This document shows positions 39,330 to 40,014 of a stretch of DNA of 55,165 bases, piece after piece. The position numbers and the translations under genes were made by a program. Origin of the DNA: Diplocarpon mali. Taxonomy: Eukaryota > Ascomycota > Leotiomycetes > Helotiales > Drepanopezizaceae. The notes beneath the pieces are model-generated. The model was not told the origin of the DNA and made no database searches. It was given only the letters and a program-made list of their open reading frames with translations. The stretch is from positions 11,528-66,692 of the forward strand of contig JAENRP010000173.1 of assembly GCA_024741835.1 (NCBI GenBank). The letters run 5' to 3'. The stretch's first letter is position 1. The number at the start of each line of letters is the position of its first letter.

Positions 39330-40014
39330 CTAAACCTCAGTCGTAACACGAGCCTTGGGATTGGTCACCTTAACACCGAGCTCCTTTGCGCGCGAAACAA
39401 TCTCAATTCTCTTCCTCGAAGAAACGGCATGGGAAATCCTAGAATGACGTTAGTCCCCCACATTTCCAACTTTTCTTGGAAGAACTTACTCGGCAGCAAA
39501 GGTCTTGTTGTGCATTAGGAGGAGATCGACGTCGCGAACGTTGTTGACGAGAAAAGCCTTGTGTCCAGATGGCATCATATGGCGGGTCTTCTTATTGGAT
39601 CCGAAACCAATCTATCATCTCATCAGCCATGGCCGTCAATACTGACAGTCCACAGGTTCTGGCCATTATCTTCGCCGTCCAACTGTTGGTACTCCAACAT
39701 GAACCTCATCCTGTCCTAACACGTACCGAAGGCATAACCATTTGACCCTTGAAACGTCTTCGGACTCGGTTGTCAATACCCTTGGGCTTTCTCCAGCTGG
39801 CGTCAAGGCATTTGTAGGTGTCTGCAGAGTATTAGAGATTGGTTAAGAACGCAATAAACTCGTAGAAACTTTCCAGACTGGTGCCTATGGAAACGCTTGG
39901 TGCCTGCGCATGCCTCGTTAGCACATATAATTTTGTATTCGTGGCGCAAATTTCGTTCTCGGGAAGGGACGAACGCTTCTTCACGATCGGGACGTGCTTT
40001 GCGGCGGAAACCAT
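39330..40014 (-). CDS. rpl32: 60S ribosomal protein eL32
   Basis: Component of the large cytosolic ribosomal subunit. Five coding exons on minus: 40014-39975, 39903-39874, 39821-39727, 39611-39490 and 39438-39330, giving 131 residues, close to the size of the human protein. The whole chain aligns with the family: VPIVKKRTKRFHRHQSD, then SWRKPKGIDNRVRRRFKG, IGFGSNKKTRHMMPSGHKAF and RVTTEV at the end. The exons are too small to show as one long frame. Introns are 71, 52, 115 and 51 bp. Three are GT-AG, but intron 2 (39873-39822) begins GAAAGT, a GA donor, and no GT site in the area restores frame. A 5' UTR intron ends directly at the ATG. It is probably a highly expressed essential gene, unless a second copy exists. 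Confidence 0.95.
39822..39873 (-). other. Non-canonical GA-AG intron in eL32
   Basis: The 52-bp intron starts GAAAGTTT and ends CTCTGCAG, with CTAATAC as a likely branch site. Exon 2 must end CAGTCTG and exon 3 must start ACACCTAC to give the conserved HQSD-TYKCL junction and a 131-residue product. A single change (GTAAGT to GAAAGT at +2) explains the donor. Confidence 0.75.

What the first reader, a model, noticed from the sequence alone, without database searches (positions are those of the whole stretch)
39822..39873. GA-AG intron in the ribosomal protein gene eL32
Exon 2 must end CAGTCTG and exon 3 must begin ACACC to give the conserved HQSD junction and a 131-residue eL32. The intron between them starts GAAAGT, not GTAAGT. 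I checked the other GT dinucleotides nearby and none keeps frame. GA-AG introns are extremely rare (a few animal cases such as FGFR genes), and here it would sit in an abundantly expressed, essential gene. Either the spliceosome of this fungus accepts it, the locus is a non-functional copy, or it is a base-call error.
Basis: partly seen in the sequence, partly recalled or inferred. Interest (0 to 1): 0.75.

Follow-up and report, generated by a model that had tools for sequence, protein, structure and literature searches.

The report
GA-AG intron in ribosomal gene eL32
A fungal gene for an essential ribosome protein seems to contain an intron that starts with GA instead of the almost universal GT, and the published gene models of three related fungi break at exactly this spot, so it is probably a genuine rare exception and not a sequencing slip.

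Summary
On the minus strand the only tested splice junction that gives an intact 131-residue eL32 joins 39874 to 39821, so the 52-nt intron reads GAAAGT...CTGCAG. It is the only eL32 found in the 49.4-Mb assembly. The closest protein is from Cadophora (Helotiales, Ploettnerulaceae).

The best argument against a base-call error comes from relatives' protein models. Of 169 eL32 proteins listed in three searches, three are broken at this junction: Oculimacula yallundae, Rhynchosporium graminicola and a Mollisiaceae fungus. With Cadophora they are the best-ranked named relatives. The Oculimacula model fits a GT 4 nt downstream plus an exonic AG, which implies its own donor is G|GNAAGT with N other than T. 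Cadophora sp. M221 is modelled normally.

The four U1 and one U6 snRNA loci found have ordinary recognition sequences. Of 28 introns read at other conserved junctions, 27 are GT-AG and one is unresolved. I read this as an isolated GA-AG intron spliced by the normal spliceosome. No transcript or relative's DNA was available. GA-AG introns are already known in fungi, plants and animals, so this is a new member of a known kind.

The parts
40015..40086 (-). putative 5'-UTR intron, GTACGA...TACAG, ending immediately before the ATG
   Evidence: Sequence reading. Relatives' models carry extra residues directly before the Met. Inferred, no transcript.
39975..40014 (-). eL32 coding exon 1 (40 nt)
   Evidence: Translation
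39904..39974 (-). intron 1, 71 nt, GTTCGT...CGCAG
39874..39903 (-). eL32 coding exon 2, 30-nt microexon (skipping it keeps frame)
39872..39873 (-). non-canonical GA donor of intron 2, context CTG|GAAAGT
39822..39873 (-). intron 2, 52 nt, GA-AG; branch-like TTAAC with its A 21 nt before the intron end
39727..39821 (-). eL32 coding exon 3 (95 nt)
   Evidence: PF01655 hit
39612..39726 (-). intron 3, 115 nt, GTACGT...GATAG
39490..39611 (-). eL32 coding exon 4 (122 nt)
   Evidence: PF01655 hit
39439..39489 (-). intron 4, 51 nt, GTAAGT...TCTAG
39330..39438 (-). eL32 coding exon 5 with stop codon (109 nt)
   Evidence: PF01655 hit

Best explanation
Intron 2 of the single eL32 gene found is a genuine U2-type GA-AG intron. 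It arose by one substitution at +2 of an otherwise good donor (G|GNAAGT). The ordinary U1 snRNP recognises it through pairing at -1/+1 and +3 to +6, with one internal mismatch at +2. The ordinary U6 and branch site then complete splicing. A non-GT donor at this site is shared by other Ploettnerulaceae and probably Mollisiaceae, either as GA or as GC from which GA was derived. Shown here: the sequence, the intact gene, no second copy found, ordinary U1 and U6 loci, and the broken gene models in relatives. Inferred: that the intron is spliced at GA, and the exact bases in relatives.
For: Of 43 in-frame combinations only GA/AG gives intact eL32. One eL32 locus in the assembly. Oculimacula yallundae P0032 reads HQSG-NWRKPKG, the same at the junction as the in-frame product of GT 39869 plus the AG before 39796 in the window. 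Codons TCT-GGN-AA|C at that spot imply a donor G|GNAAGT in Oculimacula, and N = T would have offered an ordinary GTAAGT. Rhynchosporium graminicola P0085 reads like exon 1 joined to exon 3, KKH-TYKC. Mollisiaceae P0121 replaces the same segment with unrelated residues. These are 3 of 169 listed proteins. Among the other 166 the junction is intact or varies only by substitution, except P0152, a fragment starting downstream of it. The GA site pairs with the fungus's own U1 at -4.4 kcal/mol, against -1.6 and -1.5 for the nearest GT sites; 23 of 63 predicted GT donors are weaker. Published precedents are functional: Trema SYMRK GC to GA, ATM +2T>A; 35 GA-AG introns are counted in Ganoderma lingzhi.
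Against: No transcript spanning the junction was in hand and no DNA of any relative could be read. Cadophora sp. M221 (98% identical, P0001) is modelled with a normal HQSD junction, so its donor may be GT or GC. A 30-nt exon is easy for gene predictors to miss, which could by itself explain P0085 and P0121, though not P0032. Gene models of other fungi in the set are also broken at other junctions, most often next to exon 1. One Botrytis model, P0008, is disturbed in exon 3 just after an intact junction. Random 11-mers pair with U1 as well as the GA site in 367 of 5000 draws, so the pairing is supportive but not striking.
Confidence: 0.75

Rival explanations
1. The A at +2 is a base-call or assembly error, or a rare allele, and the usual sequence is GT.
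For: One base separates GAAAGT from GTAAGT. The nearest named relative, Cadophora sp. M221, has a normal model. At 27 of 28 other conserved junctions read in this genome the donor is GT, the last being unresolved.
Against: Three relatives have models broken at just this junction, and the Oculimacula model is hard to explain if its donor were GTAAGT. Reads were not available to settle it.
Confidence: 0.13
2. A sub-case of the best explanation: relatives have a GC-AG donor, the common non-canonical type, and GA is a private change of this species or strain, as in Trema SYMRK.
For: GNAAGT in Oculimacula allows C as well as A or G (inference). GC is the commonest non-canonical fungal donor, 1.009% on average (PMC7072748, Table 1 passage). 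Trema SYMRK went from GC to GA with function kept.
Against: None direct; it differs from the best explanation only in history, and its probability overlaps with it.
Confidence: 0.4
3. The cell really uses another junction: exon 2 is skipped in frame (121 aa), or GT 39869 with an exonic AG gives 124 aa, so eL32 is shortened in this clade.
For: Both products keep frame, and both forms are what is deposited for Rhynchosporium and Oculimacula.
Against: 138 of the 144 proteins seen keep H[QH]S[DE]; three of the other six differ there by substitution only. The spacing from HQS to WRKP is 12 in 161 of 169. The residues are conserved in two solved ribosomes. Two relatives would need two different shortened proteins. 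P0009, from a 'merc' source, carries the clade's own residues on both sides of an intact junction, although its C-terminal half looks chimaeric.
Confidence: 0.05
4. The locus is a non-functional copy and a working eL32 lies elsewhere or outside the assembly.
For: The assembly is in 676 contigs and could be incomplete; no completeness figure is given.
Against: The reading frame is intact in all five exons with 131 conserved residues, and family and DNA searches found no other copy.
Confidence: 0.03

Closest known systems
Trema orientalis SYMRK intron 12 (GC to GA donor, functional; PMC10668435, abstract and passages seen)
   Same: A GA donor in one particular gene of one lineage; the gene stays functional.
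   Different: There RNA coverage, a functional test of the GA variant and a population survey exist, and relatives are known to carry GC. Here relatives' donor base is only inferred.
GA-AG introns of Eurytemora affinis and Oikopleura dioica (PMC5714493, first of two parts of the text read; PMC7072748, abstract and passages)
   Same: GA donor with A at +3, and gene models broken at the GA introns.
   Different: There GA and GG together make up 10-12% of introns in sampled Eurytemora genes, with obligate exonic AG before them. Here the exon ends in TG, none of 27 other resolved junctions is GA, and all four U1 loci found are ordinary.
Vertebrate FGFR1-3 GA donor (known to me here through passages of PMC4176328, PMC7072748 and PMC5714493)
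   Same: GA-AG, U2-like consensus.
   Different: The FGFR site is alternative and depends on a GT six nt upstream. Here the nearest upstream GT is 5 nt away with weak U1 pairing, and no good alternative donor is seen.
Rare GA-AG introns in fungi: 35 in Ganoderma lingzhi (PMC11590231), listed among types in Fusarium graminearum (PMC3577648); passages seen
   Same: Fungal GA-AG introns at very low frequency.
   Different: Here the host gene is a core ribosomal protein gene with no second copy found, and the anomaly is shared with related fungi at the level of gene models.

Membership tests
U2-type GA-AG spliceosomal intron | GA at intron start and AG at end, required by the reading frame | tested here: met
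   only GA 39873 / AG 39822 of 43 in-frame combinations gives intact eL32 (GG-CA is an equivalent writing of the same junction)
U2-type GA-AG spliceosomal intron | U2-like donor consensus outside +2, pairing with U1 | tested here: met
   G|GAAAGT matches U1 at -1, +1 and +3 to +6; -4.4 kcal/mol with the fungus's own U1 5' end
U2-type GA-AG spliceosomal intron | Branch site and ordinary length | tested here: met
   52 nt; TTAAC with A 21 nt before the intron end; the other coding introns are 51-115 nt
U2-type GA-AG spliceosomal intron | Spliced RNA spanning the junction | not testable with these tools
   No reads available; P0009 from a 'merc' source is suggestive but looks chimaeric
U2-type GA-AG spliceosomal intron | Conservation in related genomes | tested here: inconclusive
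   Models broken at this junction in 3 relatives, normal in Cadophora M221; no DNA of relatives
FGFR-type GA donor | A strong GT donor six nt upstream on which GA depends | tested here: not met
   Nearest upstream GT is 5 nt away with -1.5 kcal/mol to U1; functional dependence not testable
Eurytemora-type genome-wide GA donors | GA at several percent of introns, obligate exonic AG, possible variant U1 | tested here: not met
   0 GA in 27 resolved conserved junctions; exon ends TG; 4 of 4 U1 loci found are ordinary. The sample is small.
U12-type intron | RTATCCTT donor (motif recalled) | tested here: not met
   Donor reads GAAAGTTT

The most novel reading that the evidence does not exclude
The weak GA donor has been kept by selection across Ploettnerulaceae and Mollisiaceae as a control point. 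Slow removal of intron 2 would let the cell tune eL32 supply, because retention gives a stop after 46 codons and skipping of the 30-nt exon gives an in-frame 121-residue product. eL32 itself could provide the feedback. This would be a conserved non-canonical splice site used for ribosomal protein homeostasis.
Probability: 0.08. Interest if true: 0.65.

Novelty: new member of a known kind. Interest (0 to 1): 0.42.

Why it matters
If it is real, a core, presumably highly expressed gene tolerates a donor class that makes up about 0.04% of introns in one closely studied fungus (35 GA-AG, 0.038%, Ganoderma lingzhi). An ordinary spliceosome would then process it, so +2 U can be replaced when the rest of the donor is good. 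It also shows that broken protein models in databases can mark non-canonical splice sites. The deposited eL32 of Rhynchosporium graminicola and Oculimacula yallundae is probably wrong because of it.

Tried and rejected
Alternative junctions: all in-frame GT/GC/AT/GG/GA donors between 39900 and 39822 with AG acceptors down to 39733 were listed, and none but GA 39873 keeps the conserved protein. Compensating U1: none found. Four U1 loci came from the family search (41 of 589 first-look candidates scored) and the same four from a DNA search (4 of 4 scored); all begin AUACUUACCU. U6: one locus (47 of 3126 candidates scored), ACAGAGA intact. RNA structure around the donor: nothing unusual, z -0.47.

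Self-trained gene finder on 255,165 bases: 40 genes and 63 introns in the last round, GT donors only by construction, so it says nothing about GA frequency. It did not call eL32 above its score threshold. It was used only for the U1 energy comparison and for rough donor weights.

Conserved-junction sample: 30 places were read by script and by eye (23). Two had no intron (L034, second place of L039), one stayed unresolved (first place of L049), and 27 were judged GT-AG. Two of these were checked again (L037, L052). For L045 the donor is clear and the acceptor is not. At least six adjacent hit pairs seen were left out (C258, C289, C44, C8, C376, C75).

Relatives' DNA: a viral-contig scan gave one weak 46% match (L009), which was not followed up. 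Literature: seven answered searches, of which I saw listings with abstract starts, showed no paper on this eL32 intron. Those nearest the question were L32, splice site, non-canonical, Rhynchosporium; three of four terms; ribosomal protein, GA-AG, splice; Oculimacula, genome, splice site. Passages looked up in PMC13326754 and PMC11732430 gave nothing that I used.

Full report
What is there. The eL32 gene runs on the minus strand from ATG at 40014 to the stop ending at 39330, in five coding exons. Introns 1, 3 and 4 are GT-AG and 71, 115 and 51 nt long. Intron 2 (39873-39822, 52 nt) starts GAAAGT and ends CTGCAG. The spliced frame gives 131 residues, with HQSD formed across the exon 2/exon 3 junction. 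A putative 5'-UTR intron (40086-40015) starts GTACGA and ends in AG just before the ATG.

Is GA really required? I listed the in-frame, stop-free pairings of a GT, GC, AT, GA or GG donor (39900 to 39822) with an AG acceptor down to 39733. There are 43, of which 14 use GT. Only GA 39873 / AG 39822 keeps the stretch RHQSDTYKCLDASWRKP. The mRNA could not tell GA-AG from GG-CA, because the junction can slide by one base; GA-AG is the natural choice since it keeps the AG acceptor. Retaining the intron gives a stop after 46 codons, and skipping the 30-nt exon 2 keeps frame with 121 residues.

Copy number. The PF01655 search and a 701-base DNA search of the whole assembly (49,369,952 bases, 676 contigs) found only this locus. 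No completeness figure is given for the assembly.

Who is it? The closest protein is from Cadophora sp. M221, 98% identical. Cadophora sp. M221, Oculimacula and Rhynchosporium are Ploettnerulaceae, and Mollisiaceae is another family of the same order, Helotiales.

Evidence from relatives. No DNA of relatives could be read, but their deposited proteins record how gene predictors coped. Three protein searches listed 120 of 2833, 120 of 2808 and 120 of 2522 hits, 169 distinct proteins in all. In three of them the exon 2/exon 3 junction is broken by the model. (a) Oculimacula yallundae P0032 reads RHQSG-NWRKPKG. This is what the window would give at that place with GT 39869 and the AG before 39796. 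The codons needed, TCT GGN AA|C, imply the donor G|GNAAGT. With N = T a predictor would have had an ordinary GTAAGT giving the full conserved protein, so N is probably A, C or G. (b) Rhynchosporium graminicola P0085 reads VKKH-TYKC, as exon 1 joined to exon 3 would. (c) Mollisiaceae sp. DMI_Dod_QoI P0121 replaces KRFHRHQSDTYK with unrelated residues. When hits are ranked on residues 30-131 only, these three rank 2nd, 3rd and 7th; with P0001 they are the four best-ranked named proteins, and ranks 4 to 6 carry only a 'merc' source.

The other 166. The spacing from HQS (or HQA) to WRKP is 12 in 161 of 169. The eight exceptions are the three above; P0008 (Botrytis cinerea T4; spacing 13, disturbed in exon 3 after an intact HQSD); P0122 (an earlier match in its N-terminal extension misled the count, junction intact); P0078 and P0130 (substitution in WRKP, junction intact); and P0152 (a fragment that starts downstream). 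Some proteins differ by substitution at the junction, and P0158 and P0159 start just upstream but keep it. Broken models at other junctions do occur: by my reading at least nine at the exon 1 side (P0034, P0093, P0112, P0145, P0147, P0150, P0151, P0156, P0157), two at exon 3/4 (P0022, P0054) and two at exon 4/5 (P0044, P0049). Mis-modelling is therefore not rare in itself; what is special is that this junction fails only in the window's nearest relatives.

Results against this reading. Cadophora M221, the closest relative, is modelled normally, so its donor may be GT or GC. A 30-nt exon is easily missed, which could explain (b) and (c) without a non-canonical donor; it does not explain (a), where exon 2 was found but ended 4 nt too late. 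P0009 carries the clade's residues (MVSAAKHV, CLDAS) on both sides of an intact junction, but its C-terminal half looks like another fungus. That 'merc' denotes metatranscriptome assemblies is my recollection, so I give it little weight.

Spliceosome. Four U1 loci were found by family model (41 of 589 candidates scored) and the same four by DNA search. All begin AUACUUACCU, so there is no compensating U1 among those found. The one U6 locus found has the usual ACAGAGA box (47 of 3126 candidates scored). With this U1, the GA site pairs at -1/+1 and +3 to +6 around a single mismatch at +2, at -4.4 kcal/mol. Intron 1 scores -0.3, intron 3 -7.0, intron 4 -5.6, and the nearest GT alternatives -1.6 and -1.5. 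Of 63 predicted GT donors, 23 are weaker, and 367 of 5000 random 11-mers are as strong. So the site is a reasonable U1 target but not an exceptional one.

Is the genome full of such introns? I read 30 places between adjacent exon hits of proteasome, Ras and ubiquitin-conjugating genes (families; at least six further pairs were left out). Two have no intron, one is unresolved, and the other 27 are judged GT-AG, partly by eye. This makes frequencies like the 10-12% of sampled Eurytemora genes (PMC5714493, first part of the text read) unlikely, but not rare further cases.

Comparison with what is known. GA-AG introns are rare but established: 35 (0.038%) in Ganoderma lingzhi (PMC11590231, passages); listed among the non-canonical types in Fusarium graminearum, where seven genes with non-canonical sites, types not told in the passage, were checked by Sanger sequencing (PMC3577648, passages); and a GC-to-GA change in Trema orientalis SYMRK that stays functional (PMC10668435, abstract and passages). 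One ATM +2T>A variant forms a functional GA donor (PMC12805630, passages). In Eurytemora the exon before GA ends in obligate AG; here it ends in TG. The FGFR site depends on a GT six nt upstream (PMC4176328, passage); here the nearest upstream GT is 5 nt away and weak. Misplaced junctions at a nearby false GT, as in Oculimacula, are a described artefact of GA-AG introns (ITPR1, PMC4176328).

Verdict. I take it as a genuine, isolated GA-AG intron in a core ribosomal protein gene, spliced by the ordinary machinery, at a donor that is probably non-GT in several related fungi. Whether relatives have GA or GC is open. It is a new member of a known kind, of moderate interest, and one look at relatives' DNA or RNA-seq would settle it.

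Noticed in passing
L054:161-211 (G000 C67): The only U6 snRNA locus found carries a 51-nt GT-AG intron-like insert (GTGAGT...CTAATGATATCCAG) just after AGCATGGC (sequence; coordinates counted by hand). Introns in fungal U6 genes are known (recalled, not searched).
   Followed up: partly
P0085 (Rhynchosporium graminicola) and P0032 (Oculimacula yallundae): The deposited eL32 proteins lack conserved residues at the exon 2/exon 3 junction and are probably annotation errors caused by a non-canonical donor.
   Followed up: yes
L005-L008: Four dispersed U1 snRNA loci with the same 5' end but differing bodies; all score below the Rfam cut-off (46.3-56.2 bits against 69.5).
   Followed up: partly
window:40015-40086: Putative 5'-UTR intron whose acceptor AG abuts the eL32 start codon; relatives' models carry N-terminal extensions before the Met.
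   Followed up: no
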